A DNA stretch of 64,000 nt from Panopea generosa. Its lineage: Eukaryota; Mollusca; Bivalvia; Adapedonta; Hiatellidae. The stretch covers positions 55,571,853 to 55,635,852 of the forward strand of contig CM055899.1 in assembly GCA_029582155.1 (NCBI GenBank). The letters run 5' to 3'. Below, one piece after another: positions 24,221-56,517 of the stretch. Below the pieces are notes generated by a model. The model was not told where the DNA came from. It ran no database searches and saw only the letters and a list, made by a program, of their open reading frames with translations. Position 1 is the stretch's first letter. The number at the start of each line of letters is the position of its first letter. A program made the translations under genes and the position numbers.

Positions 24221-26120
24221 GATTTGAATTATACATTTAGGTGTTTAGGGTTGAATTATGAGAGAATACCATATTAGTGCCTGATTTAATCAGGTGAGGC
24301 AAAAAAAAAAAGCATGAGCCATATAGTATTCTTATAGTATTCTATTAATCGTAACATTATTTGTGTTGTTTTGTTTTATTTATATTTAAAATCAACAACT
24401 GATTTTTAATCCAGCAAACCATGTGTGTACATCTGCGACAAATGCGCCAGAAAATAGCTCCAACTTTTATCGATAAATTATATATAACAAAAAAAAAATT
24501 TCTGTAAACTTTTTATAACTATTAGCTTATATATTGATATAATAAAAAGTTTATTAACAGTTTATAAACAATGACATTTGTGTGTGTTGCTGCAAGATAA
24601 ACGTTCCTTGCTGATAAAGCAAAAGTTTTTTTCTTGCCTCCACTTTATTATTATGATAATCATAATGAAATACACAAGAGTCTAATTGATTCAGTTTATT
24701 TTGAACGGTTGGGTACTTGTAATGTCTAGACATATCTTAATATATGGCAGCAAATGCTTCCGTAGCTGAAAATAGAGGTTAATCAACAGAGGTTTCATAT
24801 AATTCTGGATGGCTGGTCACATATCTGAAAAAATCAAGTGTTCTAATATCTGTCTTTATTTTAAATGTCTAATATCTAACATTAATCTGTTTTTCAATTG
24901 AAAAAAAAAATGTTGTTCATAATATCTGACTGAAAAGAAATAATTCCCAATAGATATTTTCACTTCTATTTCCCCATCACAGAAATCTCTCGAAATCACA
25001 GGCAAAACTGTAATACAAATTGTATTATCATTAATTGTATTCTTGACTACCAGCGTTTCTTTTAACAACTTCTAAAATGCCAAAGTCTCACATGACATTT
25101 AAATCTGTAAATATGCATTCATTCTCAGACATGTTTTATTGACATTTTAGCTTGGTAAATGTGATAGTACATCTGATGTGCAATAAAAAATGATTTTCTT
25201 TCTTGAGCTTATTGTTTATTACATCCCGTATTATCCAAATATCAATTCCAATGTGTCCAACTAAGGCATCCAGCTATATTGAAATGTTACAATTATTATC
25301 ATCCACAAAATTGATGGACATTGAAATGGCATACATCCGTTTGTCTGTCAGCGTGTACATGGAGAGGGAGTTGCCCAAGATAAAAAGAAAACCTGATTAT
25401 GTTCAGTATCCATTTAAGTTTTTTCAAAAAAAAATTTTTAAGTGATATTTCTTTTGTTCCAAAATATTGAAAGTACAAATTAAGGCTCATTCCATGCGGT
25501 GTCTGTCCGTCAGTCATATTTAGGACCAACAGCCTTACAGACACAACTCCTCCCACAGTTTTAATTTGATTCAAATGAAACTTGCCTTGATGTACACGAG
25601 ATACATGATCTGGTTGTTAACCTGTGGTCTTGGCATTCCAACTCAATGATTTCTGAGTTATGATTCATTGATCTTTTTGATGAAATTGCATTTATTTGTA
25701 ACTTTGCATTTCAGCACATAGCTTTTGCATATCAGCACCTTCCATCATAAAATGTCATATGGGGATTATTGAAAGTCAGCATGGTCAATATTCTTAATGA
25801 TAAAGTTCAGTTGAACAATTCTTTATTCCTATTTCTTTATTCTTAATGATAAATTCAAAATTCTTATTGCTAAATGTTTCAATCTAATATGTCATTTGTA
25901 TACAAATTTGCAATGTGTTTTATCTTTTATTTCTATTAATTTTCATAGTTGTTAATAATAAGTCAAATTTTTTTCATGCCAAATGATTGTTTTTTATTCC
26001 TATTTACTAATTCTAAATGAAAAATGCTTAGGTGTTTGTTCCAATTGCTTAACACTTCATTCTTATATTGCTATTGTTTACTTCTCAAGTCTTACTTGTT
26101 ATGTAAATTTGATCTTACTG
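24221..26120. other. No gene seen
   Basis: AT-rich. The part 25,300-25,560 (CCGTTTGTCTGTCAGCGTGT and GTGTCTGTCCGTCAGTC) looks like an eroded dispersed repeat of the same kind as the start of the 47.4-kb element. Confidence 0.4.
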
Positions 26121-28776: not shown

Positions 28777-28849
28777 TTTATACTGATTTTCAATGAGAAT
28801 ATAAAAACACTTCAAATGCATTAGTGCTTCTTTTCCAAATTTTACTCTT

Positions 28850-28925
28850 GTCAGGGGTTGAACCTGAGTCTTCTACCAAAAAAGTAGATGTGTTGGCCAG
28901 TTACACCACAAAAGTCTAAAATTTG
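28850..28925 (-). other. tRNA-like pol III promoter relic
   Basis: The complement reads GGTGTAACTGGCCAACACAT, then ACTCAGGTTCAACCCCTGAC, with A- and B-box-like blocks at tRNA spacing. It does not fold into a convincing cloverleaf and is probably an eroded SINE head. Confidence 0.35.
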
Positions 28926-36195: not shown

Positions 36196-36205
36196 TCCAA
36201 GATGA

Positions 36206-36420
36206 TTCACCACAATGCATTTATTTACCCGTTTTATTGCAACAACTCAATTATTTACCAGTTCTGTTGCCCCAACTCAATTATGTAACAGTTCTATTAC
36301 CACAGCTTAATCATTTGCCATTTCTATTGTCACCACTCAATCATTTGCCACTTCTATTGCCACAACTCAATTATTTGCCAGTTCTATTGCCACAACTCAA
36401 TTTACCAGTTCCATTGATTT
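36206..36420. repeat. 30-bp minisatellite, module copy 2, about 7 units
   Basis: Same 30-bp unit as at 30.6 kb, followed at 36,428-36,575 by the same single-copy segment (ATAATTCCTGAATTAGTTTC and TTTACGCTATTTGGAAGCTG). Confidence 0.9.
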
Positions 36421-36575
36421 GCCATTACTCATATAATTCCTGAATTAGTTTCATATATTAGGCCCTGCAACCCATGTAAACCCCGCATTTAGGAACAATT
36501 TGACACAAAAATTGTCCCAACTGAGTTGTTGTTCTTTTGTTTACGCTATTTGGAAGCTGGATTTACCACAAGAAC

Positions 36576-37737
36576 CAGCTGTTTCCAAAGGGTGTGTGGA
36601 GCTCAAATAGGTCCTAGTACCCCAAACTTGAGTCTCTGTCATGACAACCAAACAACCCAGTCCAAGGACTGGGTTTCTGTTTGCTTGCTGCCTTCCTTGG
36701 ACATGGTAGCCATTTTCAGACTCCCTCTCTCTCTGGGATTGAACCCGATTCCAAAATACCCGTAAAAACCATGGTAGGCATATAACGTACCATCTACAGT
36801 TGATAGGGCAGATGCTTACAAGATAAAGTCGCTAAAGCCAAATGTTATTCAGAGTTCTAATAAGAGCACTTCTGATAGAGCTTTGTTGCATGTATTAGCT
36901 CTAAATTACAACAATACAAATGTATTGTACTATCTAGTGAACCATATCTGATTTAAAGAGACATTCGCAGCTTCACATTGTTCCGTGTGGCATGCAAGCT
37001 TTGTTCTGAGACGAGCGTAAATATGGAGATCAAAATGCAGGTGAGTTTGCCAGCAAGCCGACAGACCCTCTTGAATGTAAACTTACAATATTATACTTTA
37101 GCCATGAGCATCTATTGTACTATACACTCGAATTGTCAAAGTAAAACATGGACTGCATGGCTCCACTATTTAGCTGATGATCTACAGCAGTATCGTAATA
37201 CAGCTGAGTTTCAAACAACCAATGGTTTCTCTGCTAGCATAAATTTACAGGTCTGATCGCAGACCGAGGTGGTCACTACAGGACAAGTCAAGACATGTGC
37301 ATGTTAATAATGGAACTAGCTGAGCTACTAGTCCACCAACAAGCTTCTCGGGACCAAGATGATTGCTGCGCCACTGAAAGGAGGAACCAGAGTTCGTTCC
37401 TATCGGGTGGTGACTGATGTGCCATTACCAAGGTGAATGCAGGATGAATTATCAAATGGTGTATTGGCCTATTTTCAGTAAAATATTCAATGTTGCCACA
37501 AGTTTCCACATCTGCATAAATACTAACACTAGGGATTTTTTTTGTTTTTTGTTGTTTTTTTTGGTTGTTTTTTTGTGTTTTTTTGTTGTTTTTTTTTTTT
37601 TTTGGTTTGTTAGTTTTGTTATTTTTTTTTTTTTTTGGTTAGTTTTGTTAGTCACATAATACAAAATGACAAATGAGAAGTACTCCTATACTAAAGTATG
37701 GCACCCTAAGTATGACATCCATCTATATGGCAATCCA
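36576..37737. other. Unassigned, partly coding-like region
   Basis: 36,580-36,780 has a perfect CCCAGTCC/TTGGACTGGG-type inverted repeat (CCCAGTCCAAGGACTGGG). At 37,024-37,042, ATGGAGATCAAAATGCAG is followed by a consensus donor GTGAGT on the plus strand, but no matching acceptor exon could be chosen. 37,537-37,638 is T/G-rich low complexity. Confidence 0.35.
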
Positions 37738-37912
37738 CCAGTTCCAACCTGGTACGAACTGCAGAAAGAGCATCCGGCACAGGTTTCTAAACCTTCCTAA
37801 CTGGGACAGCAGTGTGCACTAGACACAAGACACTCTACTCTGCCAGAGTATCTAAGACGCGGCTGGGGACATGAACTGGAGACACCACATAAATAGGTGC
37901 CATACACCATAC
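37738..37912 (-). pseudogene. Decayed tandem copy of terminal exon 3
   Basis: Immediately after the exon 3 stop, the minus strand repeats the exon in degraded form. The best-preserved block is GTCCCAGTTAGGAAGGTT, identical in both copies and spaced alike relative to the flanking GTTCGTACCAGGT / ATTCGTACCAGGT. Earlier matches include GGTATGG-GGC-CCT and CT(C)TGGCAGAGT against CTCTCGCAGAGT. The copy contains in-frame stops (for example TAG within GGTTTAGAAACC) and lacks an acceptor, so it cannot encode the same tail. It may now be 3' UTR. The duplication unit is about 205-210 bases. Confidence 0.6.
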
Positions 37913-37917
37913 CTGAT

Positions 37918-38169
37918 CTAGTAAGACAGCCTCTCTGGACGGCGAACTACCCGACCTGACCTGGTACGAATCTCCACAGGAGCGTTCAGTACAGGTTCCT
38001 TAACCTTCCTAACTGGGACATCTGTGTACCGGACAGGTAGTCTAGGCACTCTGCGAGAGCGTCTCAGAGACACGGGAGGGGGCGTGAGTTGGTCAGGTAG
38101 TGCCGCACAAACAGGCGCCATACAAGGCACAACGTACCTCTCAGCTGCTGGAAGGGCATCACCGGCAAA
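37918..38169 (-). CDS. Terminal exon 3 of the three-exon gene, basic tail resembling retroelement Pol C-termini
   Basis: A strong acceptor (pyrimidine-rich TTTTCTCTTTTCAG|TTTGCC) opens an 84-codon stretch ending in TAG at 37918. It joins exon 2 in phase 0 and encodes residues 96-178. The first third is mixed (starts FAGDALPAAERY). The rest is Pro/Arg-rich, with SLRRSRRVPRLPVRYTD and, at the end, IRTRSGRVVRRPERLSY. R-S/T-R-S-G-R followed by P-x-R-L/F/Y is typical of the tails that follow integrase in Ty3/gypsy-type Pol proteins, which suggests retroelement ancestry of this exon; that is inference. The three exons sum to 537 bases including the stop. The intron between exon 2 and this exon is about 12.6 kb and packed with repeats, so additional skipped or undetected exons are possible. 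A decayed copy of this exon lies directly downstream. Confidence 0.55.
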   Translation of the reverse strand, partial: FAGDALPAAERYVVPCMAPVCAALPDQLTPPPVSLRRSRRVPRLPVRYTDVPVRKVKEPVLNAPVEIRTRSGRVVRRPERLSY

Positions 38170-38860
38170 CTGAAAAGAGAAAATAAAATATTGGTTAAGA
38201 ATAAAACTTTCAAATCATTATCAAATTCAATATGTAATCTTACTGTTTAGATAAAATAATTATTTATCCAATAAGTTAAAACCATCACACTAGAAAACCA
38301 TAATTATATGCTCAAGAAGACTTCTAGTTAATACTTCCTACATTTAAGAGCTGTTGGAATGACAGCAAACTCGATTATTCGAATATTTGTCACAAAAGTA
38401 CAAAATTGACTAAGACTGATGCAGAGGCAAGCAAACAAGAGTAATCTAACAAAACTGAGTAGGACTTATAACTGCAATACCTTGTATGAAGTTTCAACCC
38501 AATACAATTACAGTGACTGCCGAGTTATAAAATTTTCTAAGTTAAACAAAGTGCCTAATTTGCAACAAAATCTGGCAAGAGTTATCCCAATTGATTAATT
38601 TAGTTGGTTTCATGCATACACAGCCATATATAAAGTTTCATGCAAATACATTGAGTGGTTGATGTGATCTGGACTTGATGGTACTTGCACACAAAACTTT
38701 AACCAGCTAGCCAGTATTTAAGCTGAAATGTATTTAATTTAATACAATTTTTATTTAAATCTGGGTGTGGATGTGGGGGTGTATATGTCAAAGTTTAATA
38801 AACAGGGCTGTGCAGTTGTAATACAATGAAAAAAAGTTGGAGGGGGAGGGTGTCTTGGGG
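38170..38860 (-). other. Intron 2 sequence adjoining exon 3
   Basis: AT-rich, no gene. Contains repeat wording (CAAAACTTTAACCAGCTAGC) shared with the 40-41 kb region. Confidence 0.4.
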
Positions 38861-41000
38861 TTGGTAACAAAGTGTATCTTATTCAATACAGAACACAATT
38901 TTAAGAAAACAATTGGAGGGGGTGGATGGTTTTGGGGTTGGTAACAAAGTGGCAGAATAGTATTAAATTTAAAACGAAAACAATTTAAAAGAAAAGAAAA
39001 ATGAAAAAAATGTTGGGTGGTGGGGATGTCCTTGGGGTCAGTAACAAAGTTGAAATGGGGGAAAGTATTTAATTTAAAACAAAACAAAATTAAAAAAAAT
39101 AAAAATAAAAAAATGGGCAGGGATGGGGGTTGGATAAGAGTGAGGGTTTTTGGGTCAGTAACAAAGTTGAAATTGGGCAGAGTATTAGATTTAGTACAAA
39201 ACAAAATTTAAATAGAAAAAAAAAAAAAAAAATGGGCGGGAATTGGGGTGGGGGGATGGGGTAGTAGGGGTGAGGGTCTTGGGGTTGGTAACAAAGCTGA
39301 AATGGGGCAGAGTATTTGATTTAATACAAAACAAAATTAAAAAATTTGGGTTGGTAACAAAGTTGAAATGGGGCAGAGAATTTGATTTAATACAAATCAA
39401 AATTATTTTATTTTTAAAAAATGGGCAGGGATGGGGGTGGGGGGGGGGGGTAGGGGTGAAGGTCTTTGGGTTGGTAACAAAGTTGAAATGGGGCGGAGTA
39501 TTTAATTTAATGCAAAGCAAAATTTAAAAAAATGGGCGGGGATGGGGATGGGTTGAGGTGTGGGGGTGGTAGGGGTGAGGGTCTTTGGGTTGGTAACAAA
39601 GTTGAAATTGGGCAGAGTATTTGATTTAATACAAAACAAGATATAAAAAAAAATGAAAAAAAAATGGGCGGGGATGGGGAGTGGGGAGTGGGGGTGCTAG
39701 GGTTGAGGGTCTTTGGGTCGGTAACAAAAGTTTAAATGGGGCAGAGTATTTGATTTAATATTAAACAAATTTAAAAGAAAAAAAGAAAAAAAATGGGCAG
39801 CAGGGTGGGGGTCTTGGTTGGGCTCGGGCAGGAAAGTCCATTTAATAGGTCAAGGTCAGTGATGTAAACTTTTTTAGTTGATGGTGATCAGCTTACAGAA
39901 ATAATAGTACAGTATTACTGGGAAAAAAATAGATTCAAAAAAAAAAAAATAGATTCAAAAAAAAAAAAATTGATTTAAAAAAAAAAAAAAAAAAAAAAAA
40001 TTCAAAACCCGAGCTAAACAGAAACTGTTTTAGAGCCCAAAGTATGTAAATTAAGGTAGGTTAGCTATATACATGGTTTGTATAACATGATATGAATGTG
40101 TTTATGAAATTTAATCACTGTAACACGAGTTGTTTGTTCAGAAACAGAGAAAAAGCTGAGCTAAACATAAAACTTTAACCAGCGGACAACAACGACGTCA
40201 CCGCCGCCAGGGTCATGACAATATATCTTCGTTTTTTTCCAAAAAGATGACCTAAAAATTCAATAACTCGACTATTCTAACCTCGTCACGAAACATGTAT
40301 TATTATGTACTATCAGAAAAACAGATATATCTATATGAATGAAACAATCTTTCATATAAGCAAAATAGTAAAATACATTTTTTTTTGTATGTGCAAGTAG
40401 GATTATTAGGGCAGAATACACACATGTCTAGGTACTTAAGTTGAAATGTATTTAATTTAACATAATTGTTTTTTAAATCTGGGTGTTGATGGTTGGGGGG
40501 TGTATGTGCCATTCATGTATGTTATGTGTAAGTTTAAGAAACAGGGCTGTGCAGTTTTAATACAATAAAGAAAACAGTTGGAAGGGAGCATCTTGGGGTT
40601 GGTATCAAAGTTGAAAAGGGGCAATTGGTAACAAAGGGGCAGAATAGTATTAAATTTGAAACAATTTTTAAAAAAAAATGGGCTCTTAGTGCGGCGGGGG
40701 TGTCCTTAGGATCAGTAACAAAGTTCTTAGTGGTGTGTGTGTGTGGGGGGGGGGGGGGGGGTGTTTTTAGGGTCGGTAACAAAGTTGAAATGGGGGAAAG
40801 TATTTGATTTGAAACAACAATTGTTTTAAGATAATGGGGGATGGGGGTTTGGGTCTTTGAATCCGTTGCAAAGTTGAAATGGGGCACAGTTGTCAAAATT
40901 TTAAAAAGAAAAAAAAAGGGTGTGGGTCTTTGGGGAGTAGGGGTGAGGGTATTGGGGTCAGAAAATTTAAATTGGAAGAGAATTTGATTTAATACACAAA
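38861..41000. repeat. G-rich dispersed repeat in a loose tandem array
   Basis: Copies of TTGGTAACAAAGTTGAAATG, GGGCAGAGTATTTGATTTAA and TACAAAACAAAATT alternate with A-runs and G-rich blocks such as GGGATGGGGGTGGGGG. There are roughly nine copies between 38.86 and 39.77 kb, then degraded ones near 40.6-40.9 kb. Frames that stay open through it are repeat artefacts. The G tracts could form quadruplexes on the plus strand. Confidence 0.85.
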
Positions 41001-41564
41001 AAAAAAATGGGCAGCATGTGCGTGGGTGGTCTTGGTTGGGCTTGGGCAGGCAGCCGATGGTAAGGGGACAATGGGCCTGGCATATTCAAACTGATACAAA
41101 ATATTTCCCATCTATGATCAATTTATCAATCTGGATACATTTACATGTACAATTCATATAAATACCCAATAACAGTTTTGAGTTCTTAAAACGTAACACT
41201 TTTAACCAAATAATGTTAGTATTAACCAAGTCCATTAAATAGGTCAAGGTCAGTGATGTACAGAGAAAAAGCTGAGCTAAACATAAAACTTTAACCAAAC
41301 CCAAGCTAAACAAAAAAACTTCAACCTAAGGTTTTAAAGCCCAAAGTACAGAAAATTTGGTAAGTTAGCTATACATTGTTTCTATAACATAATATGAATG
41401 TGTTACGAAGTTTAGTCACCATAACATGAGTAGTTATTCAGAAACAGAGAAAAAGCTGTGCTAAACATAACACTTTAACCGGCAGACGCCGCCAATGCCA
41501 GGGTCACAACAATAGCACAAAAAGACGAGCTAAAAAACCATTGAAAGGAATATAACTCTTGAAA

Positions 41565-41695
41565 GCTGCCAGAGAACAGCCAGAGTACAGCTACCAGAGG
41601 ACAGCTGCCAGAGCACAGCCAGAGTACAGCTGCAAGAGAACAGCCGGAGCACAGCTGCCAGAGTACAGCTGCCAGAGAACAGCCAGGGCCCAGTG
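41565..41695. repeat. Short GC-richer minisatellite
   Basis: Alternating ACAGCTGCCAGAG and AACAGCCAGAGT motifs, about five double units of roughly 26 bases. The open minus-strand frame across it (repeated CSLAAVLW) reflects this repetition. Confidence 0.8.
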
Positions 41696-42264
41696 TTTTT
41701 ACTATTCTAGCCTTCTCACAGATAACATGTACCATCAGAAAAAAAACAGGCATATCTCTACCCATTAAACCATCTTTAAGATCAAATAGTAGATAATGTG
41801 GTGTTCAGGTGTGTGCTTGAGGGGTTTTCTGATATCAAAGTTAAAATTGAGCATATTAATTAGTTTAATACAAAAAGAAAATTAAAACAAACAAGAACAA
41901 TAGGAAACACTTGTGCGAGGTGGTGGGGTGGATGTGATTGGAGACCTTGAGCATGTATCAAAGTTTTAACGAAGTTGATTTTTTTATTACAAAAAAAAAA
42001 AAAAAACAGAGAAGGGGAGATAAAATTGGGTAAAGTATTCAATACAAAACAAAATAAATACAATAAAGACTGTCAGAGAACAGCATTAGCTTGACAATTC
42101 TAGCCTTGTTACACCAGAGGGAATGGAATGTTGAGGGGGGCAGGAGTAATAAAGCTAAAATATGGAAGAGTACTAATATTTCATTTTAAAACACGACAAA
42201 ATTTTATACAATAGACATAGGTTGAGGGTATTGAGCAGTAATATAGTTAAAATAGGGCAGAGTA

Positions 42265-43249
42265 CAAGGGGGGAATCAGAAAGTTTGTAGGCTTTTGCTA
42301 CAACTTTTTTATTTATAATTGTATTCTAATAATACTCAGGGAGCCTTCGCCTTTATATATTTGCAGTAATTTTTCAAAAAAAAATGATAATTTTTTATCA
42401 TTTATTTAGTTTATGTTCTATAGTAACTATGGAAATGTTGAATTATGTAGTTGGGACAGTTTTTTGCTTTTTTTCTACCTCTTCTATCATAACAAGAGTA
42501 GCACTGCCAAAACGAGTTTAATTTTTAAATAACACCAATGTGTGCTATGTCGTATGCTTGTTTACATCCTTTTAAAAAAAGCCACCAATTATATGCATCT
42601 CAAAATGACGTCCTTATCATGATGTTACTTTATGCCATTTTGTTCGAAACAAATTGGTGTTGGGGTACTTGAAAATGGATAAGCACGGGGAATACTGCAG
42701 CTCTGTAAAGTTCTGTCCATGTTAGGTATTACATCTGCTTAAACAGAGTATGTACGGTGAATCTTATGTTAAAGGTCTCATGTTTTTAAATGTCACAAAA
42801 TTAATGTTTTTGAGATAGCTGGGAATCAGTGATTAAAAAAGAGCAAATTAGAAGTCAATTTGAAGACATATTGGAATTAAAGCATGTTTAACAGAATTTT
42901 GTGTCCAGTATACCATCTTCGGATTTTGTTAACATGTTCACTCAATGGTGTTAATGGTGATAAAAACATACATACCAGGGAGTAGAGTATTTTGAGAAGG
43001 AGGGACTCACAGTATATTTGAAACAAAAGCACCTTGTTTAAATATTGACGTCGGTTTTTGTTGAATACAACATCATCATTTTGCCCCAACATGTCTAACT
43101 TAACTATGCTTTGAATCATGCCTTAATTTTTTAAATGCTAAAATTTTCAAAACCATGCCCCATATACATTTATTTCAAATACAATAACACTATTGTGCAT
43201 TGTATAACTGATATATAAATAAGTCTACAAACTTTCTGATTCCCCCTCG
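42265..43249. mobile_element. Mariner/Tc1-type element with terminal inverted repeats, flanked by TA
   Basis: The element has 29-30-bp terminal inverted repeats: CAAGGGGGGAATCAGAAAGT at the left, and the complement of the right end reads CGAGGGGGAATCAGAAAGTT. Each end abuts a TA (42263-42264 and 43250-43251), the target-site duplication of Tc1/mariner elements. The 985-bp length is slightly short for a full mariner. The longest internal open frame (80 codons, minus strand) shows no transposase motif I recognise. On the plus strand a short stretch near 42675 (KMDKHGEYCSSVKFC) might be an eroded HTH start. I read it as a decayed or non-autonomous copy. It has split a repeat unit: sequence ending in ggcagagTA on the left resumes as TA plus the same family on the right. 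Confidence 0.8.
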
Positions 43250-43389
43250 TATATCAATCCATTTACAAGAAAATGTAAGAAAAAAAAATTGGGATGGGTG
43301 TGATGTGGAGAGGGGGTGGGGTCCGTTAATAAAGTTGAAAAAATTGAGCAGAGTATTTTATTTCATTTAAAACAAAATTCAAATAAGAG

Positions 43390-43680
43390 TTGTCAGAAGA
43401 CAACAAAGCTCACCCCGGGGTGTCTAAGTCCAAAAAGGGCCATAACTGTGCCAAAATGCAATCCAGAGTTATGTTTCTTGTCTGTGAGTTACATTGATGA
43501 TGGTGAACACACATGTGAAGTTTCATTCACATCCAATAAATGGTTGCATAAATATCTTAAACTTAAACGCAAAGGTTTAACCTGGGTGCCCACAGACGAC
43601 AATGACAATGATGCTGGGGTCATGGCAATAGCTCTCCTTGGACTTTGTCCCAGCGAGCTTAAAAAAAATTCCTTTCTTAT
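43390..43680. repeat. Bivalve-type dispersed repeat (GGGCCATAACTGTGCC family)
   Basis: Includes AAAGGGCCATAACTGTGCCA, ATGATGGTGAACACACATGT and CATGGCAATAGCTCTCC. I know this wording from molluscan genomic repeats. The 128-codon plus-strand frame across it is a by-product. A relative lies near 40.15-40.23 kb (CACCGCCGCCAGGGTCATGA). Confidence 0.55.
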
Positions 43681-43872
43681 TTGCAACAAGTTATTTTTTT
43701 AAAAATCAGGGATGAAAGGGGTTGTTGATGGGTTGGCGGTTCATAAAATTAAAATTTGGCAAAATAGTTCATTTCATTTAAAACAAAATTCAAACAAGAG
43801 CACTATAAGTGGGTGCGGACGCTAGTCTTTTTAAAGTCCATTTAGGCGGTCATGGTCATTTTGTAAAATAAA

Positions 43873-44590
43873 GTTTGCAGAATGATGGTGATGATGTATA
43901 GCAAGTATGATTAGAATCGGATGAAAACTGTAGGAAGAGTTGAGGCCACAATGTACATGTGTTTATGAAATATTTTAAAGTCAGGATAAGGGGGCATAAC
44001 TCCTTCAATAATAATTTGGGTGAAAAATCCTTATGATATGCATATGTTCAGATGATGTTGATGATGTATAGCAAGTTTGATTAGAATCGGATGAAAACTG
44101 TAGGAAGAGTTGATGCCACAATGTACATGTGTATATGAAATATTTTAAAGTCAGGATAAGGGGGCATAACTCCTTCAATAATAATTTGGGTAAAAAATCC
44201 TTATGATATGCATATGTTCAGATGATGTTGATGATGTATAGCAAGTTTGATTAGAATCAGATGAAAACTGTAGGAAGAGTTGAGTCCACAATGTACATGT
44301 GTATATGAAATATTTTAAAGTCAGGATAAGGAGGCATAACTCTTTCAATAATAATTTGGGTGAAAAATCCTAATGATATGCATATGTTTAGATGATGTTG
44401 ATGATGTATAGCAAGTTTGATTAGAATTGGATGAAAACTGTAGGAACAGTTGAGGCCACAATGTACATATGTATATGAAATATTTTAAAGTAAGAACAAG
44501 GGGGCATAACTCATACAATAATAATCTGGGTGAAAAATCCGACAATATGCAGTTGTTCAGATGATTGATGATATGAGTAAGTTTGAGTTT
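43873..44590. repeat. 170-bp tandem repeat, about 4.2 copies
   Basis: GATGATGTATAGCAAGTTTG recurs at 43,891, 44,061, 44,231 and 44,401 with exact 170-base spacing, and partially near 44,570. Each unit carries AAGGGGGCATAACTCCTTCA. Confidence 0.9.
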
Positions 44591-45156
44591 ATTTATTAAT
44601 TATCAATAAAATGTTTTTAAAAAAAATAAGATACTGAATCCAAAAGAGGTTATGTTCTTTATAATACACATTAACAAAAAACACACACAACAGAGCCAAC
44701 ATTTGGTTGAAAATTGATATACCGGTAAAACAAACAAAAATAAGAATTGTGAGACAAATGTGAAAGTAATGTCTATATACAACTTGCACCTCAAGTTCAA
44801 CATTTAATGCCTTGAACGGAATTATTGCAACCCTTTAAGACTCTTAAAGAGTACAAAAAAATCAAGGTATAAGCAGACAACTATGCGCCATGTAAGATTC
44901 ACTTAACTATAGGTATGCATGTAAATGTAATAAATCACAACTTGCACCAAAACTTTAACATACAGTTTAAAGACAAAATCTGACCTTTTCTGCCTTAAGG
45001 TTAGGAGCTCAATATGTTACATAATGCCTTAAAGTCATACAAAGTTTCAGCCATATAACTAAAATCAATGCACACTTATGACCTTGACTTCGAAATTAGG
45101 AGCCCATAATACAATGTATTCCTCGGAGTATAAGCATGTACAGTTATACGGAGGGT

Positions 45157-46290
45157 AACATCCGCCTTAATTCAGATTGCTTAATTGCAAATTTCAACTA
45201 ACTTGTTTATTTAATTTGATAATTTAATTCACTTAAATGCCCACTTCTATCTTCTATGTGAGTGAACTACATGCAGATGGTAAATTACAGATTGTATTCA
45301 CTCAAATGATAATTTCATGTTCTTAATTAGTGTATAAAATGCATGTTGCAATTGGATAATTACAAATCTCATTCACTCAAATACCAACGTCTTGCTTTTA
45401 TATAATTATATGCCAATTTGTGTTAATTGCATATTGCAAATTATTATGAAGTACTATTCTTTATCAAACAATATTTTTTATGTGAAAAAGGCTAACTCTT
45501 TTGTTTGTTACATCAAATAACAATGTATTCTATAATGAGGTCATAGGTTCGGTCCTCCACCAACGCAATGTGTGGTGTCCTTGAGTAGGACACATTATCC
45601 GAATGTTTAGTACTGATTCTACCAAGGATGACTTTGACTTTGTCTAAGTTGTAATAGCTTATTTCTCAATCAAAGTAAAATAAAAATAAATTTAAAATAA
45701 AAGTTTAAAGTAATGGGTGGGGGTGGGGGGGGGGGGGGGAGATTTATCTAAACTATCATCGTTTTTATCCTAATTACTTTTTGATACAGATTTGTTATAG
45801 AAAATTAAAAATATAAAAGCATTAGTTTACAACTAGCCATTACATCTCTATGGAGATGCATAAATTTACATAAGCCTTATCAAACTTGTGTTCATGTCCA
45901 TTATATTCATTATTCATTATTTTCATGTTCATGTTTTTTATATTTATGTTCATTATTTTACATTCTTGTAGTAAAGTTGTATGTTGTGGGGTATTTTTTG
46001 TTAATGTTCATATGTTCATAATTTTTGCTCTTATACAATATTGCAATATTTGACCCACCATATTCAGAAGCTACACCATTTGATTTGTTTACTTGAGAAC
46101 AGCTTAAACATGTTATTGACCGATACAGGTAAGACAGGTTATTGGTACTCAAATATGAAGTGTTTGCATATGAAACGGTAATTTCAAGCTTGACCTATAC
46201 CATACAGTGATGAACATGGCTAATTATAACTAACTTTGAATCAAACTCAAAATATCACAGAGGCAAGTGACAATATTTCTATATTCCTAG
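45157..46290 (+). repeat. 1.13-kb tandem duplication, unit 1
   Basis: This unit starts ACATCCGCCTTAATTCAG and ends ATTTCTATATTCCTAG. It repeats head-to-tail as the next 1,135 bases with only a handful of differences (gcaaat/gcgaat, ttatatgcc/ttttatgcc, cggtcc/cgatcc, caagctt/cacgctt, one T, and the length of a G run). It includes a retroposon D copy and a poly-G tract near 45,724-45,740. Confidence 0.9.
45537..45693 (+). mobile_element. Retroposon family D, copy inside duplication unit 1
   Basis: Carries GAGGTCATAGGTTCGGTCCT, TGTGGTGTCCTTGAGTAGGA, ATTCTACCAAGGATGACTTT and AATCAAAGTAAAATAAAAAT. The 5' head is poorly preserved. It was present before the 1.13-kb duplication, since both units have it. 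Confidence 0.55.
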
Positions 46291-47425
46291 TACATCCGCC
46301 TTAATTCAGATTGCTTAATTGCGAATTTCAACTAACTTGTTTATTTAATTTGATAATTTAATTCACTTAAATGCCCACTTCTATCTTCTATGTGAGTGAA
46401 CTACATGCAGATGGTAAATTACAGATTGTATTCACTCAAATGATAATTTCATGTTCTTAATTAGTGTATAAAATGCATGTTGCAATTGGATAATTACAAA
46501 TCTCATTCACTCAAATACCAACGTCTTGCTTTTATATAATTTTATGCCAATTTGTGTTAATTGCATATTGCAAATTATTATGAAGTACTATTCTTTATCA
46601 AACAATATTTTTTATGTGAAAAAGGCTAACTCTTTTGTTTGTTACATCAAATAACAATGTATTCTATAATGAGGTCATAGGTTCGATCCTCCACCAACGC
46701 AATGTGTGGTGTCCTTGAGTAGGACACATTATCCGAATGTTTAGTACTGATTCTACCAAGGATGACTTTGACTTTGTCTAAGTTGTAATAGCTTATTTCT
46801 CAATCAAAGTAAAATAAAAATAAATTTAAAATAAAAGTTTAAAGTAATGGGTGGGGGTGGGGGGGGGGGGGGGAGATTTATCTAAACTATCATCGTTTTT
46901 ATCCTAATTACTTTTTGATACAGATTTGTTATAGAAAATTAAAAATATAAAAGCATTAGTTTACAACTAGCCATTACATCTCTATGGAGATGCATAAATT
47001 TACATAAGCCTTATCAAACTTGTGTTCATGTCCATTATATTCATTATTCATTATTTTCATGTTCATGTTTTTTATATTTATGTTCATTATTTTACATTCT
47101 TGTAGTAAAGTTGTATGTTGTGGGGTATTTTTTGTTAATGTTCATATGTTCATAATTTTTGCTCTTATACAATATTGCAATATTTGACCCACCATATTCA
47201 GAAGCTACACCATTTGATTTGTTTACTTGAGAACAGCTTTAAACATGTTATTGACCGATACAGGTAAGACAGGTTATTGGTACTCAAATATGAAGTGTTT
47301 GCATATGAAACGGTAATTTCACGCTTGACCTATACCATACAGTGATGAACATGGCTAATTATAACTAACTTTGAATCAAACTCAAAATATCACAGAGGCA
47401 AGTGACAATATTTCTATATTCCTAG
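46291..47425 (+). repeat. 1.13-kb tandem duplication, unit 2
   Basis: Second unit of the head-to-tail pair. The junction reads CCTAG|TACATCCGCC, with at most a base or two of shared sequence, so it does not look like recombination between long flanking repeats. The near-identity implies a recent event, or an assembly artefact from unmerged haplotypes. Confidence 0.9.
46671..46828 (+). mobile_element. Retroposon family D, copy inside duplication unit 2
   Basis: Almost identical to the copy 1,134 bases upstream, but with GGTTCGATCC at the B box where the other copy has GGTTCGGTCC. Confidence 0.55.
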
Positions 47426-47438
47426 TATAATCTTTATT

Positions 47439-47965
47439 GTCCCCCACTTTTTGAAAAGTGGGAGACACAAATTGGGGTCTGTCTATCTGTCCGTCTGTTA
47501 CACTTTCCGTGCCATAACATAAGAATGCCTGAATCAAACCTTTTGAAATTTTAATACAATGTTTATAATGACAAAACCCAGGCAAAGTTTGATTTAAGGG
47601 GTTGTGACTTGTTGTAAGAGTAATGCCCCTTTAATTTGTGAAAAATCTTATTTTTGGGGGGTTTCCATACAACAACTTAAGAACGCCTGAATCAAATCTT
47701 TTGAAATTTTGATACAATGTTTTTAATGACAAAACTCAGGCTAAGTTCAGTGGTTGTGACTTTTGTCATTGTAGAGTTGTGCCCCTAATTTATGAAAATT
47801 CCTATTTCTTTTGGTTTCTGTGCAAAAGCTTATGAATGCCAAAATCAAATCTTTTGAAATTCTAATATGTTTATAATGACAAAACACAGGCTAAGTTTGA
47901 TTTTTTTTCCCATGCAAATACTTAAGATTATGCCTGAATCAAATCTTTTGAAAAATGTGGGGGAC
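47439..47965. repeat. Dispersed repeat with GTCCCCCAC termini and internal repeated module
   Basis: Begins GTCCCCCACTTTTTGAAAAG with a small CCCACTTTT/AAAAGTGGG hairpin and ends AAAAATGTGGGGGAC, the terminal 9 bases being inverted repeats. Inside, a module with CCTGAATCAAATCTTTTGAA and TGACAAAACTCAGGCTAAG recurs about four times. No coding capacity. It starts about 14 bases after the 1.13-kb duplication ends. Confidence 0.6.
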
Positions 47966-49114
47966 ATAAATTCCCTGAAATTGTATAGTTATACTATATA
48001 TAGGGATATGGAATGTATATGATCATTAGCCCCTGTGCTCAATATGATGTCATAAATAAACATTACCAGTGCTAAGGTATACATAAAACTTACGCATTTG
48101 ACACTGTATCACATGCATCAGTTTTCAGAAGCTACATCAATTTATTTGTTTACAGCAATGTGCTGATGTCAGTGCCAGAAAATCAAATTTATCATAGCCA
48201 TCTTGTTAAAAAGACTTTTAAACCTTCTTGAATGAAGAGTTGTTGTCAAGCAGTGCGTGTATGATATTTGTTGCAATGGGATTCTGTTTTTTACATCTCA
48301 ACTCTCAATTAAAATATCATTTCCTGCCATGTTTCGGCAAATTCATTGTTATTTTAGACAAATGATAATTATATATATGCTTTATATTAATAATATCTTT
48401 AATTCATGTTTTTAGACTTTTATAGGATTTAGACAGATAGTTTACGGACTACTTTGTCTTTTTATAGCTTTTGTAATAGCTTTCATGATTAGTAAAGGTT
48501 TTATTTTAATACTCAAGCTGTTTAACTCACATTTCAAAAACTTTTGCAACACTATTCCATATAAAATCTGTTAATTATATACGGAGATTCAACAGTTTAG
48601 TCGACATTTTCATGCAAGTTTATCTATAATACAAAATAAGATTTCAATATATTTTTCCATTTAACTATATTTGAAACGAAATCCCTATTCTAAAAATAGA
48701 CTCTTTCTAATATGAAAAAATCCAGCATACAACCCCAATAAACTCCTACATTTTATTAAAATTCATCATTATAACTACTGTAAAACATGTGTGCCTGTTC
48801 AGATATTGTGTTGAACCCCTTTAAACTGAAATCCTTGAATCGCACCTGTGTATAACAGATCAAATTGAAACCAAAATGAAACCATGTGACTGATTTAATA
48901 TGTCACAAAATATGATTGCACTATTTTAGTCTAACATAGATGTGTAGCTCAAGTTATGATATCCTTTTTTAATATATTATTTTGGCATGTTTACATATAT
49001 ATATATCCTTTTAGCATTTTTGGGTCAGTGAGTATACATAGGCATAATATATTGGGATAATATGTTTTTAGCCAGTTTTAAAAATTTGAAAAATCCTGAT
49101 AAACTCCCTTTAAA
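47966..49114. other. No gene seen (within intron 2)
   Basis: AT-rich sequence between the GTCCCCCAC repeat and the 50-bp array. No exon borders stood out on the minus strand. Confidence 0.4.
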
Positions 49115-49955
49115 TATACAGTATTGTAACAGATTATAGAACAACAAAGAGTCAAAGGATTTCCAAATATACAGCAATGTTACATTTCAGATAACAGCAG
49201 GAAGACCAAATATGCATTATGTTACAATCCAGAAAATACCACAAATTGCAAAAATACATTATGTAACAACCCAGAAGATAGATCTACCAAAAAGTCCAAA
49301 TATACATTATGTAACATTTAAGATAATAGATCTACCATAAAGTCCAACAAAGTTCAAATATAAAGTACCGGTATGTAACAATCCAGATAATACCACAAAG
49401 TGTAAAAATACATGATATCATAATCCAGGAAAACAGATCTAACACAAAGTCCAAATATACATTATGTAACATTTCAGATAATAGATCTACCACAAAGTCC
49501 AACAAAGTCCAAATATACAGTATGTAACAATCCAGAAAAAGACCACAAATTGCAAAAATACATCATGTAACAATCCAGAAAATAGACCTACCACAAAGTC
49601 CAAATATACATTATGTAACATTTCAGATAATAGATCTACCATAAAGTCCAACAAAGTTCAAATATAGAGTACCGGTATGTAACAATCCAGAAAATACCAA
49701 AAATTGCAAAAATACATAATGTAACAATCCAGAAAATAGATCTACCACAAAGCCCAAATATAAATTATGTAACATTTCAGATAATAGATCTACAACAAAG
49801 TCCTACAAAGTTCAAATATACAGTATGCTATAATCCAGACAATATCACTAAGTCCAAATATACAGTATGTAACAATCCAGATAATACCAAAAGTCACACA
49901 AGTCTAGTATACATTATGTAACATTTCAGATAAAACCTTGAAGTCTAACAAAGTC
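49115..49955. repeat. Minisatellite of about 50-bp units with a 304-bp higher-order period
   Basis: Units contain CATTATGTAACATTTCAGAT, AATAGATCTACCACAAAGTC and CAAATATACAGTATGTAACA. The ACCGGTATGTAACAATCCAG variant recurs at 49,367 and 49,671. Confidence 0.85.
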
Positions 49956-50764
49956 TAAATGAATCCTTTCCACCTCAGTCTATAAATCTGCCAGTGTGAC
50001 CTTTTCTTTTATTCACTTTAATATTCTAACTGTACATGCACATTTACTTATGAATGGATATGTTTTTGAGGTGACAATTGTGTTTTACTTTGTGAAAACA
50101 TTTGAATGCTGACCTATATACAACACTATAAAATTTAGTCTGTAGTTCAGACCTAGCTCTCCCAATTTGGTCTGTTAAATAGCAATGTCCTATTTGAGCA
50201 CATTGATTGGACAGTTGCTTAAATTGAAAGTTTAAATGATGTCACAGTTTAGTAAGCATTCAATTGCCATTAATTGTGGGACAGGCATAGAATTCCCAGC
50301 TTTTTCATTGGGGTTGATAGACCTGATTCGGGAAATATGAGGTTCTGGTATGTAAAACTTAAAATATAAGGACAATGTATTACAGATGCAGAGTGATCAG
50401 AAAGGTCCTCATCAAGTATTTCCATGAGGATTTTCACATATTCACAGCATAATAGATTAAAGGTGATTGATGTCTAATGTAGAACAGGCACCGACTGATC
50501 AGAAAAGCACAATTGAGCCTTTGACTCAATAGAGCTACAATTTATTGACAGCTGCAGGGGTGTAAAATTCCATTTAGTCACAATTATTTTTTTTTGTGAG
50601 TAGAGTACCGGTAGATCATTTTCAAAAATTTCTTTCAAATCTGTATTTTTGAAACATTTAAATATGAAATCCCAAAGTTGACAGTTTATACTGTTTATGA
50701 AACTTTTCACCCCTGAAAGTAGAGAAACATTCAGATATGATGTTTGAACAATCTTTGTATTTAC

Positions 50765-50920
50765 CTCCTGAGCCTGAGCTGCACAGCGACCCCTCCCCGG
50801 CAACTCGACACCTACAACCCGGTCCACAGACAGCACGGCAGCAGGAACCACAGCGACGGCAGCCACAGCGACAGGCACAGCGACAACACACACCACGGGA
50901 TCCACAACCACCACGGACGT
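50765..50920 (-). CDS. Exon 2 of the three-exon gene, Val-rich segment
   Basis: The exon is bounded by an acceptor (ATTGATTGTAG|ACG) and a donor (CAGGAG|GTAAATAC). It is 156 bases, exactly 52 codons, and joins exon 1 in phase 0. In that frame it encodes residues 44-95: a valine-rich hydrophobic run (for example VVCVVAVPVAVAAVAVVPAA), then a short polar end with RGRC and AQAQE. The exon is strikingly GC-rich compared with its flanks and is built from short degenerate repeats of GTCGCTGTGG. A second frame is also fully open and would give a Cys/Arg-rich peptide with 16 or so Cys. Only the Val-rich frame is consistent with phase 0 on both sides. The long hydrophobic run could be a membrane segment. 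The low-complexity composition makes the protein reading less certain than the splice sites. Confidence 0.5.
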
Positions 50921-51174
50921 CTACAATCAATATTTATAACATTACATATAATGTCAATGCATGTATCATACACAAATCTTGAAACCGTCATAAATTCTTT
51001 GAAACTGGACCATTATTTACATCATGGTTGCCCTATCATTTGTAGATGTGTACTAGCATAGGTAAAATACAATAGTAACAACATATCTTATTAGATTTTT
51101 GAAAACAAAATTAATGTTTAATGGATTCCATCTGAAAAATTTATACTAAATAAAGTTATTTTTTATCAGAAATA

Positions 51175-51467
51175 CAGGCCTGATAAGCTCAGTTGGGTAC
51201 GCGTCTGACTATCAATCCAGGGGTGACAAGTTTGAATCCCCGCCCGGCAACAGTTTCCATGATGATTGATATACAACAATGTGTCTCAATATTGATATTC
51301 TCTCACAGCTGATTCAAGTGGGACAGTTATCAGTTACTTGCAGAGATGGGGTGTGCTTGAGTACATGTTAACCTTTCTGGACCCCAGGAAACAGTGGTTA
51401 GATTATCTGATCGTCTGTTCACCCTCGATGACATAAAAATGATGCTAAATATTCAGTTTATTCAATA
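51175..51467 (+). mobile_element. SINE family A, full length, in intron 1
   Basis: Head CTGATAAGCTCAGTTGGGTA, B-box TTTGAATCCC, body CAGAGATGGGGTGTGCTTGA and the 3' AAATATTCAGTTTATTC. It sits in the first intron of the minus-strand gene, antisense to it. Confidence 0.8.
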
Positions 51468-52207
51468 AAACATGTGTTTTTAGAGAAATTTGTTAAAAAC
51501 AATAAAACTAATTACAGATATCATGAACCATCAAGATAAACTGTGACGTAGAGGAATCAATATTTACTGTATGGCATATTTCTCTTTATCCATTCGTGTT
51601 TAAATTTGCCGTTTTTACAGGTGACAATTTTAAAGGAGACAGACTATTGTACAAACTATTATCTATAACACAACTACTGGGTATACATTTACTGTGTAGC
51701 ACACATAATTAATCCAGATTTGTAGCACACATAGTTGATCCAAACTGAAGTACTGTATTACTCACGTTTACCCTGTCATGACACAGTAAGTTTTGAACAC
51801 GCACCGCCTTTCCTGCATACAAAACACGTGAAACTTTGTACAGCCCAGCAATAATAATATCGGAGGATGACGGAATTGGCCGAGCATGTACGACTATCAT
51901 TTCGAACAAGGTCTGCGTTCAGTTTAATTACATGTTTAAATTCAGTATCTGAGGTTAATTATAGACTTATACGTTATCAATGGAGTATTTTGTCAGAGAC
52001 ATATAAATAACGTAATTAGGTCACTGATTCCGTGAAGTGATTCATCTGTTCATTTCAGAGTAAAGTGTTTATTCATCTTATTGGCCTGTTTTTTATTCGT
52101 AAGCTATGTAGCCCGCTTAGCTATACGATGCCATTTATTGTTGGCCTTTTGGATATTTGCGGCAGAGAGTAATGGATCAGAAAACAGAAAACTGTTTTAA
52201 TACTCAC

Positions 52208-52336
52208 CTCAGGAGCTGGACTGCAGGTACCGAACACAGCATCTACAAGATGCTCCACCACGGAAACTGCTGATGACACCATCGATGACACACCAGTCTT
52301 CACCATACCCACAACACACGAGAACAAGGAAGCCAT
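52208..52336 (-). CDS. Exon 1 of a predicted three-exon gene, 178-residue protein of unknown function
   Basis: This exon encodes residues 1-43. It starts MASLFSCVVGMVKTGV and continues as a Ser/Val-rich, partly amphipathic stretch ending in SPAPE. It is followed by a textbook donor, GAG|GTGAGTA, and the break falls exactly between codons (phase 0). The ATG is the first after the TATA box and has G at +4, although position -3 is T. Residues 6-36 are hydrophobic with scattered Ser, which could be a weak membrane or signal-like segment or an amphipathic helix; I see no clear cleavage site. The next exon is about 1.3 kb downstream across an intron that carries a SINE. I do not recognise the family. 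The case rests on promoter, splice sites and frame agreeing across three exons, not on homology. Confidence 0.55.
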
Positions 52337-52392
52337 GAACTGATTTTCTGAAATACTTGAAATCGAGAAAATTAGAATTTGAACACGAAGTC

Positions 52393-52441
52393 GGCGCGAA
52401 ATGCAACGACAGGGGTATATATAGGCAACGTTGGTCACGTG
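52393..52441 (-). promoter_or_regulatory. TATA-box promoter with E-box upstream of the three-exon gene
   Basis: On the minus strand the sequence reads CACGTG (52441-52436, a canonical E-box), then TATATATA (52423-52416), then about 80 bases to the first ATG at 52336. The usual 25-32 base spacing puts transcription start near 52390-52397, giving a 5' leader of about 55-60 bases with no upstream ATG. The local GC content rises around 52385-52405 compared with the AT-rich surroundings. The frame of exon 1 stays open upstream as far as an ATG at 52552, so an upstream start with a longer N-terminus is not excluded, but it would put the TATA box inside the coding region. Confidence 0.55.
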
Positions 52442-52810: not shown

Positions 52811-53014
52811 ACGTGAAACATATTAATTTGTTATATTATTTATTATAGTCACTTAGTTACGTCATTATGTTCTAAATATGGCGGGTTTCGCGGAAAACGT
52901 ATTTTATTACAGCTGACAATATTATCACAGAATGTTTGTATATATGGCAAATATGGTCCTATAATATTATTACCATGTATCAAAATTAAGCAACACATTG
53001 TTAATTTTTCATAG

Positions 53015-53189
53015 AGGTGCCATAGATTTTCCGTCGTCAAGACTCGAGGCAAATGGAACAGTATTACACCAGGAGAACGGTGTGAACGTATACGTGTTCA
53101 TGAGACAAGTTAGAAAACACTTAGCCAATATACACATACAAAAGCTATCGTACGACCATCCACAAGGAAATGTACATCTTCTATTTTAA
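53015..53189 (+). CDS. Candidate terminal exon, unknown protein
   Basis: The sequence TTGTTAATTTTTCATAG provides a plausible acceptor, followed by about 57 open codons (GAIDFPSSRLEANGTV, later VYVFMRQVRKHLANIH and SYDHPQGNVHLLF) to a TAA. The composition is balanced and not repeat-derived, and CpG-containing codons are present. An AATAAA sits roughly 250 bases further on, near 53437. No upstream exon was found; the minus-strand promoter at 52.4 kb lies between this and most upstream sequence. Could equally be chance. Confidence 0.2.
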
Positions 53190-54140
53190 AGGCACTGTGT
53201 TGTGACATACATGCATTACGGCGGACACCACAGTCACGTGTCAACATTACTGAAAATAATGAAACATTATTGTGCCTGTGCATGCGGATATCTATATCAA
53301 ATCTTTTTTTTCAAACTTTGCGGGTAAACACATTGATGACATAGGACGTGAATAATCGATGCTATCAAACAGTTGAAAAGATTATCATGAGTATGGTGCC
53401 GTATAATTTACAAACCGTCGTTGCACTATTTGCAAAAATAAATTGACAGTACCGATGGTTCATCTCTATATATATATGGTGTTCGTCTTTGTTTCGTTTA
53501 ATTTCATGCCGTAATATTAAGAAAGTTTCTCTGCAATAAATATAAACTAAAGCGGATACTTTCTTTCGATTTTTACACCTCTCCATAGCCTTAGGTCACG
53601 TTGGTTCGCCACCGTGATGCCTTTAAGCAAAGCGATAGCAATTGATGTTGTGGGAAGAAATTGCATTGCATTACAATGCGTGTAATTACAACGCCTGAAA
53701 CAGGCGTAGATGCATTAAGTTTAGCGCAATTTTGTTTTTTAATACATTTTATTCAACTTTTGTATTGCGGTAGTCTAAATCGCCCCATTACTTTTCGAAC
53801 ACCCCTCATTTATCCGTCTATAAGTAGTTCAAAGTTAGAGTGAACACAAACTGCACACACGGCCCGACCACATGTACATATAGTGATGATTAGTGAGCGT
53901 GTAATGCTCCCAGGTGTGTTTACCTGTAATCCGATAAAATGTCATGCTCAGTAAATATATATATTTAATATGTATATATTTTTCATGACTGCGTCTTTTT
54001 TTCTCTTGGGGATCATTTAGCTGTCTGACCACTTATACCTCTCTTCAACGTTAAATTAATGCACAGTTGGGGTTGGGAACATAAATGATTTTTTATTTGA
54101 AACAAAAAACATACAACAGCTTGGTTTATTTTTTATTATA

Positions 54141-56201: not shown

Positions 56202-56453
56202 CTAATGGAGGGAACCCAGTAGCTCGGTGAATTGAGCTAAACTGGGTGTACCTAGGACATGATCTGGAAGGCTATTCCAAGCACGTAATGTCTTTGGAGA
56301 AAAGGCATTTGCACAATACTGGGTACGAGATTGTGAGGTCAGATAATTCAGGATACGTGTTGGGATAAGGTTGGGATGATGAACAAGCCCAGATCTAATT
56401 GTATAGAAATAGATTAGAGAAGATTTTAGTCGCCGATGTCCGAGGGTTTTCAA
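56202..56453 (-). pseudogene. 3' fragment of a non-LTR retrotransposon: C-terminal tail of the reverse transcriptase ORF
   Basis: The 83-codon open frame begins KTLGHRRLKSSLIYFYTI and ends with FSPKTLRAWNSLPDHVLG, then SLAQFTELLGSL and a stop. The pattern R-R-L-K-S-x-L-x-x-F-Y-x-I, then F-x-P-R/K-T-x-R-x-W-N-x-L-P and a final S-L-x-x-F-x-x-x-L is the conserved tail of CR1/Jockey/L2-type reverse transcriptases. Only this last part is present; the sequence upstream (above about 56455) is an unrelated minisatellite. That is the expected result of 5' truncation during target-primed reverse transcription, or of later recombination. No catalytic residues are included. Confidence 0.75.
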
Positions 56454-56517
56454 ATTAGGTGTTCAACATGGATGTTTCACTCTAGTTTGACTCTCCAGTA
56501 TAAATGCAATAACATCA

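What the first reader, a model, noticed from the sequence alone, without database searches (positions are those of the whole stretch)
37918..52441. Uncharacterised three-exon gene with TATA promoter and all phase-0 introns
A TATA box, a first ATG 80 bases downstream, a 43-codon exon, a 52-codon exon and an 83-codon terminal exon join without a single frame conflict, and all four internal borders have consensus splice signals. The chance that three unrelated open stretches on the same strand all agree in phase 0 with good borders is low. The product (hydrophobic N-terminal and Val-rich middle, Arg/Pro-rich basic tail) matches no family I know.
Basis: partly seen in the sequence, partly recalled or inferred. 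Interest (0 to 1): 0.75.

Follow-up and report, generated by a model that had tools for sequence, protein, structure and literature searches.

The report
Large unknown three-exon gene family
The predicted three-exon gene is real: it is one of dozens of intact copies of an unknown small-protein gene spread over two chromosome-sized pieces of its genome, with a distant sister family on other pieces.

Summary
Alone it is only fairly unlikely by chance (4 of 100 shuffles hold a model as good). The window's own genome (1.47 Gb) settles it. Exon 1 has 70 matches and exon 2 has 35, all on contigs C3 and C6. Of 77 exon-3 matches used there, 62 have exon 1 upstream on the same strand within 20 kb, and all 34 with exon 2 keep the order 1-2-3. 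The 30 best exon-3 loci keep acceptor, frame and stop. A sister family (63 near-full-length copies at 90% or more) lies on other contigs; against it the shared tail has saturated dS and dN of 0.34-0.48. Copies keep introns and flanks with varying borders, so they spread by DNA duplication, including between C3 and C6. No known family matches. The product has a helical N-terminus, Val/Ala-rich middle and unstructured basic tail. Function is inferred: perhaps a self-associating binder of nucleic acid or anionic surfaces.

The parts
52416..52423 (-). TATA box (TATATATA), its end 80 nt before the ATG
   Evidence: TATATATACC in all 3 promoters read (window, C6:57.69 Mb, C3:72.82 Mb). TATATATA is common here (75 per strand).
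52208..52336 (-). Exon 1, 43 codons, MASLFSCVVGMVKTGVSSMVSSAVSVVEHLVDAVFGTCSPAPE, ends phase 0 at GAG|GTGAGT
   Evidence: 70 matches, all on C3/C6; donor GAG|GTGAGT in 7 of 7 copies read; one helix predicted.
50921..52207 (-). Intron 1 (1,287 nt); part of it is a dispersed repeat of about 280 bp
   Evidence: repeat seen (query positions about 46-324; 40 of 8,034 candidates scored).
50765..50920 (-). Exon 2, 52 codons, Val/Ala-rich; weak but conserved acceptor TTGTAG|ACGTC, donor GAG|GTAAAT
   Evidence: 35 matches, all on C3/C6; acceptor kept in 6 of 6 and donor GAG|GTAA in 7 of 7 copies read.
38170..50764 (-). Intron 2 (12,595 nt), rich in minisatellites; over 66 paired copies exon 1 to exon 3 is 3.6-29.8 kb, median 10.7 kb
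37918..38169 (-). Exon 3, 83 codons + TAG, Pro/Arg-rich basic tail with two similar Arg-rich repeats
   Evidence: (30 of 30 best loci intact).
37722..37815 (-). Partial duplicate of exon 3 in the 3' flank, 72% alike; stops in all three frames over its longer extent
36541..37020 (-). Degenerate 18S rRNA-like fragment that marks one subgroup of gene copies
   Evidence: 19 near-complete matches on C3/C6, window included, each downstream of an exon-3 match, one of these a fragment.
53000..53600 (-). Upstream flank; all 83 listed matches lie on C3/C6 near exon-1 matches
   Evidence: 40 of 723 candidates scored.
24500..25650 (-). Downstream flank shared (nearly) full length by five other gene loci among the matches listed
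   Evidence: 40 of 819 candidates scored.

Best explanation
SHOWN: a three-exon gene that is a member of a large family with conserved exon order, borders, frame and stop. Copies are scattered on contigs C3 (47-77 Mb) and C6 (mainly 48-70 Mb). They multiplied by DNA-level duplication of gene plus flanks with varying borders, with movement between these two contigs. A distant sister family with a longer terminal exon is scattered on other contigs. INFERRED: each intact copy is transcribed from its own TATA promoter and spliced twice. The 18.7-kDa product (pI 9.3) has an N-terminal amphipathic helix for self-association or surface contact, a hydrophobic Val/Ala-rich linker, and an unstructured Arg/Pro-rich arm (pI 11) that binds nucleic acid or another anionic partner. 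That function is my best guess, about 0.3 likely.
For: Exons searched separately, with no splicing assumed: all 70 exon-1 and all 35 exon-2 matches lie on C3/C6, as do the 77 exon-3 matches used. Of these 77, 66 have exon 1 upstream on the same strand within 40 kb (62 within 20 kb, each with its own exon 1). All 34 with exon 2 keep the order (33 distinct exon-2 matches); 2 exon-1 neighbours were on the wrong side or strand. Acceptor AG, full frame and TAG hold in the 30 best exon-3 loci and in 3 of 3 older paralogues. No stop inside 75 of 77 exon-3 matches. Over 29 exon-3 sequences: 31 synonymous and 40 non-synonymous changes, dN/dS 0.53-0.59, p 0.006-0.02. Against the sister family dS is saturated and dN 0.34-0.48. 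Introns are kept, so copies are not retrocopies. Flank sharing is nested: 40 scored candidates near exon 1, six loci 12 kb downstream, two loci 8.5 kb upstream. C3 and C6 copies interleave on the tree (7 changes, at least 3 forced by supported branches). Helix; unstructured tail; composition.
Against: No RNA or protein evidence. Within the closest subgroup exon 3 is no better conserved than its non-coding neighbour (mean 97.5% against 97.8%, 15 loci), and in L036 it is worse (92.2% against 96.5%). dN/dS of 0.53-0.59 is mild constraint, and it is 0.71-0.94 against the three older paralogues. The absence of nonsense changes is not significant (1.3-2.0 expected, P of none 0.14-0.28). In the window-C3 comparison the exons are not outstanding: 19%, 6% and 3% of windows are as alike as exons 1, 2 and 3. 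43 of 77 exon-3 copies have no exon-2 match. One locus looks frameshifted (C3:71693723 and 71693803) and two hold stops. The function rests on composition and a five-sequence helix model.
Confidence: 0.85

Rival explanations
1. A mobile element's gene: the three exons belong to a large transposon or provirus-like unit whose movement explains the copies.
For: High copy number, both orientations, conserved upstream flank. The basic tail recalls, from memory only, the C-terminal tail of LTR-retrotransposon polyproteins. Some stretches upstream of sister-family copies read N, for reasons unknown.
Against: None of 10 other window open frames tested reached a Pfam cut-off. How far flanks are shared differs between copies. 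The window family is found on two contigs only. A pattern scan for the recalled motif found 2 viral contigs whose frames there do not look retroelement-like by eye.
Confidence: 0.15
2. A secreted structural or defence protein (shell matrix, byssus or antimicrobial type), expanded as such low-complexity families often are (recalled).
For: Val/Ala/Pro-rich make-up and cationic tail; no known domain.
Against: The N-terminus has no basic n-region and is modelled as one long helix. It was judged by eye not to be a typical signal peptide; no signal-peptide program was available.
Confidence: 0.25
3. Mostly dead gene copies carried along by segmental duplications; the open frames persist because the duplications are young.
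For: No excess of exon conservation within the closest subgroup; dN/dS 0.53-0.94 among window-family copies; absence of nonsense changes not significant.
Against: Older paralogues and the saturated sister family keep frame, stop and tail; 75 of 77 exon-3 matches have no stop inside.
Confidence: 0.15
4. The spread over C3 and C6 is an assembly artefact: repeat-rich contigs placed on either of two chromosomes.
For: Interleaving of C3 and C6 copies on the tree would look the same.
Against: Copies lie across about 30 Mb of each contig in both orientations; the contig labels are more clustered on the tree than in most shuffles (4 and 6 of 500 as low). The gene itself is not touched by this.
Confidence: 0.15

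Closest known systems
Lineage-specific expanded gene families (general kind; recalled; PMC7653742, on gene presence-absence in the Mediterranean mussel, seen only as search listing and start of abstract)
   Same: Many copies of an unknown gene, dispersed, spread by DNA duplication with introns kept.
   Different: Found on two contigs only, with exchange between them, plus a sister family on other contigs; no recognised domain.
C-terminal tails of LTR-retrotransposon polyproteins (recalled motif; no call supplied it)
   Same: Two Arg-rich repeats in exon 3, with invariant RRSxRxxRxPxxYxDxPVR and RTRxGRVxRRxxRLSY over 15 sequences.
   Different: No reverse transcriptase or integrase noticed beside it; three-exon structure.

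Membership tests
Protein-coding multigene family | Homologous exons in the same order and strand at many loci | tested here: met
   66 of 77 exon-3 copies with exon 1 upstream within 40 kb (62 within 20 kb); all 34 with exon 2 in order.
Protein-coding multigene family | Conserved splice borders, frame and stop | tested here: met
   30 of 30 best exon-3 loci; exon-1 donors 7 of 7, exon-2 donors 7 of 7, exon-2 acceptors 6 of 6; 3 of 3 older paralogues.
Protein-coding multigene family | Purifying selection on the protein | tested here: met
   dN/dS 0.53-0.59, p 0.006-0.02; 0.14-0.15 with saturated dS in 3 of 4 pairs with the sister family, the fourth not computable. Not visible within the closest subgroup, and 0.71-0.94 against older paralogues.
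Protein-coding multigene family | Spliced transcripts | not testable with these tools
   No RNA data held.
Processed (retro-)copies | Loss of introns in copies | tested here: not met
   Exon 1 to exon 3 stays 3.6-29.8 kb apart over 66 pairs, median 10.7 kb.
LTR retrotransposon polyprotein tail | Reverse transcriptase and integrase upstream in the same frame | tested here: inconclusive
   Exon 3 follows an acceptor, not a long upstream frame; no Pfam cut-off reached in 10 window frames; none noticed by eye in frames of 85 codons or more of 8 fetched loci, which were not run through Pfam.
DNA transposon or other mobile unit | Fixed ends shared by all copies | tested here: inconclusive
   Extent of shared flank differs by copy, but no end was mapped to the base and the lists are capped.
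Any Pfam, NCBIfam or PDB family | Match above the curated cut-off | tested here: not met
   Pfam and NCBIfam best hits 12-14 bits, far below cut-off; PDB no match up to E = 10.
Secreted protein | Cleavable signal peptide | not testable with these tools
   No predictor available; judged by eye only.

The most novel reading that the evidence does not exclude
A gene family tied to two chromosomes: its copies move back and forth between C3 and C6 and stay in those regions, because the protein (self-associating helix plus DNA-binding arm) acts on, or gains from the transmission of, those very regions, as a chromatin organiser or a selfish driver. The sister family would do the same on another set of chromosomes.
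Probability: 0.1. Interest if true: 0.85.

Novelty: new variant of a known kind. Interest (0 to 1): 0.5.

Why it matters
It is an unnamed protein family with dozens of intact copies and an old sister family that also expanded in the same genome, invisible to the domain libraries searched. Its confinement to two contigs, with exchange between them, makes a testable case for how dispersed gene families spread and why they stay regional.

Tried and rejected
Rejected: that the window sequence alone proves the gene (4 of 100 shuffles as good). Rejected: retrocopying. Considered and left open: gene conversion or recombination among copies. Intron 2 beside exon 3 first looked unalignable between subgroups, while the alignable upstream flank differs by 12-15%, close to the dS of 0.09-0.16 between those subgroups, so nothing special is needed there. 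But the C3:72.8 Mb copy has 15% flank difference against a dS of 0.03 in exon 3 (L026), which is not explained.

Led nowhere: viral-contig searches for relatives (77 and 42 pattern stretches, none confirmed); the recalled retroelement-tail motif (2 contigs, unrelated by eye); paper searches for tail motifs (0 papers) and for similar families (nothing on this family noticed in the 10, 8, 5 and 8 papers listed). The tail model is of low confidence and was not used for a fold search. Not done: a genome-contig scan (prokaryotes); the far 3' border at window 8,600-9,700 (not completed).

Rows dropped and caps: of the 80 exon-3 matches on C3/C6, 77 were used; left out were C3:70962239 (residues 6-42), C3:71693723 (a fragment abutting a counted match) and C3:58686404 (sister-family type). 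One search scored 150 of 213 candidates, 150 of 308 (its list was cut), 40 of 723, 40 of 4,193, 40 of 819; one search scored 71 of 71, 36 of 36, 23 of 23. The 30 loci are the best-scoring ones. and one search used the 29 of 30 that have equal length. In one search the window copy and L036 were in neither group mean.
Full report
THE OBSERVATION. By a generic weight matrix (values recalled) donor 1 and acceptor 3 are among the best on the strand, donor 2 is fair and acceptor 2 is weak. A scan for phase-consistent three-exon models of this size finds 12 that reach this score on the real minus strand, this one the lowest of them, none on the plus strand, and at least one in 4 of 100 local dinucleotide shuffles. 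So the window alone makes the gene likely, not certain. Exon GC of 52-65% against a mean of 33.5%, and a strong period-3 signal in exon 2, point the same way.

THE TEST IN THE OWN GENOME. The window is G000:C6:55,571,853-55,635,852 of a 1.47-Gb genome in 39 contigs. Each exon was searched separately. Exon 1 gave 70 matches and exon 2 gave 35, every one on C3 or C6. Exon 3 gave 150 scored matches (of 213 candidates): 80 on C3 and C6 and 70 on other contigs. I used 77 of the 80 and dropped three fragments or sister-type rows. Of the 77, 66 have an exon-1 match upstream on the same strand within 40 kb (62 within 20 kb; median 10.7 kb over the 66). All 34 with an exon-2 match keep the order 1-2-3; one pair of exon-3 rows shares its exons 1 and 2. 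Only two exon-1 matches within 40 kb lay on the wrong side or strand. This co-occurrence, found with no splicing assumption, shows that the three exons belong together.

BORDERS AND FRAMES. The 30 best exon-3 loci all keep the AG acceptor, the frame and a TAG stop. Exon-1 donors read GAG|GTGAGT in 7 of 7 copies, exon-2 acceptors TTGTAG|ACGTC in 6 of 6, and exon-2 donors GAG|GTAA in 7 of 7; a seventh exon-2 stretch did not reach its acceptor. Three older paralogues also have AG, an open frame, TAG and an exon 1 ending in GAG|GTG. Two of the 77 exon-3 matches hold stops, and one further locus looks frameshifted.

SELECTION. Over 29 equal-length exon-3 sequences (26 different) parsimony counts 31 synonymous, 40 non-synonymous and no nonsense changes, dN/dS 0.53-0.59, p 0.006-0.02 depending on the transition rate; the lack of nonsense changes is not significant in itself (1.3-2.0 expected, P 0.14-0.28). 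Against the three older paralogues dN/dS is 0.71-0.94. Against the sister family dS is saturated while dN is 0.34-0.48, a ratio of 0.14-0.15 in the three pairs where it can be computed, the window-sister pair not being one of them. Against my reading: within the closest subgroup exon 3 (mean 97.5%, 15 loci) is no better kept than the broken partial copy of itself just downstream (97.8%), and in L036 it is worse kept (92.2% against 96.5%). In the more distant subgroup exon 3 is still 90.2% alike over 13 loci, while that copy was detected only as 27-nt pieces in 2 of them, though longer alignments trace some of this flank at about 73-74% overall in several loci. In the window-C3 comparison 19%, 6% and 3% of windows are as alike as exons 1, 2 and 3.

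HOW IT SPREAD. The copies keep their introns, so they are DNA duplicates. A piece 0.7-1.3 kb upstream of exon 1 is matched, in the list, only near exon-1 matches on C3/C6 (40 of 723 candidates scored). A piece 12 kb downstream is shared nearly full length by five other gene loci (40 of 819 scored). A piece 8.5 kb upstream is shared full length only with the locus at C6:57.69 Mb (40 of 4,193 scored), which has exons 1 and 2 but no exon 3 in the 30 kb read. The C3:72.8 Mb copy shares at least window 24,500 to 56,358 in pieces, about 32 kb. Extents therefore vary, as in segmental duplication, not as expected of a transposon with fixed ends. A degenerate 18S rRNA-like fragment downstream of exon 3 marks one subgroup: 19 near-complete matches on C3/C6, the window included; the other five of 24 matches are four pieces on C4 and a 38-nt piece in the window. 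On the exon-3 tree of 33 sequences C3 and C6 copies interleave: 7 changes, at least 3 forced by supported branches. Yet the labels are more clustered than in most shuffles (4 and 6 of 500 as low), and 17 of 27 inner branches are weak. An assembly artefact in placing repeat-rich contigs cannot be excluded.

THE SISTER FAMILY. On C2, C5, C9, C12, C13, C15, C16, C18, C20-22, C26 and C27 lie 63 near-full-length matches with 90% or more identity to a single longer terminal exon (158 codons after a CAG acceptor), all without stops; other matches are shorter, more distant or broken. It shares the tail with the window gene: 31 columns are invariant over 15 sequences, three of them sister-family. Its upstream exon was not found by the exon-1 searches.

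WHAT THE PROTEIN MAY DO. No family in Pfam, NCBIfam or the PDB matches. Exon 1 is modelled as one helix, residues 2-38, mean pLDDT 82.6, from only five sequences, with 18-residue hydrophobic moments of 0.15-0.42. Exon 3 is modelled with hardly any structure (pLDDT 59, pTM 0.14) and has pI 11. I infer an intracellular protein that self-associates or docks through the helix and binds nucleic acid or another anionic partner through the tail, about 0.3 likely. The rivals are a secreted structural or defence protein and a mobile element's gene.

VERDICT. It is a new variant of a known kind: an expanded, unnamed gene family, unusual in being found on two contigs only. Nothing in print about it was noticed in the searches; those papers were seen only as listings and abstract starts.

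Noticed in passing
window 36541-37020 (-): Degenerate 18S rRNA-like fragment (Rfam 135 bits), carried along with gene copies on C3/C6; also two pieces in opposite orientation at C4:29.14 Mb.
   Followed up: partly
window 45158-47427: Tandem duplication of about 1,135 bp, 99.6% identical, inside intron 2.
   Followed up: partly
L057 (C12:34168001-34176500) and C12:33.27 Mb: Local clusters of sister-family-like fragments on one strand, some in open frames up to 283 codons.
   Followed up: no
L049, L051, L052, L056: Stretches of 0.9-3.6 kb (cut by the end of the fetched piece) upstream of four sister-family copies read N; reason not known and not pursued.
   Followed up: no
window 56205-56462 (-): Open frame that looks, by recalled motif, like the end of a non-LTR retrotransposon reverse transcriptase; no Pfam hit.
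   Followed up: partly
window 28843-28915 (-): tRNA-like match, 53 bits; gene or SINE part not decided.
   Followed up: no
window 4182-5639, 15212-18197, 31328-36207: Large minisatellite arrays (units 27/54, 77 and 74 bp); the last array is also present, in many copies, in the C3:72.8 Mb stretch.
   Followed up: no
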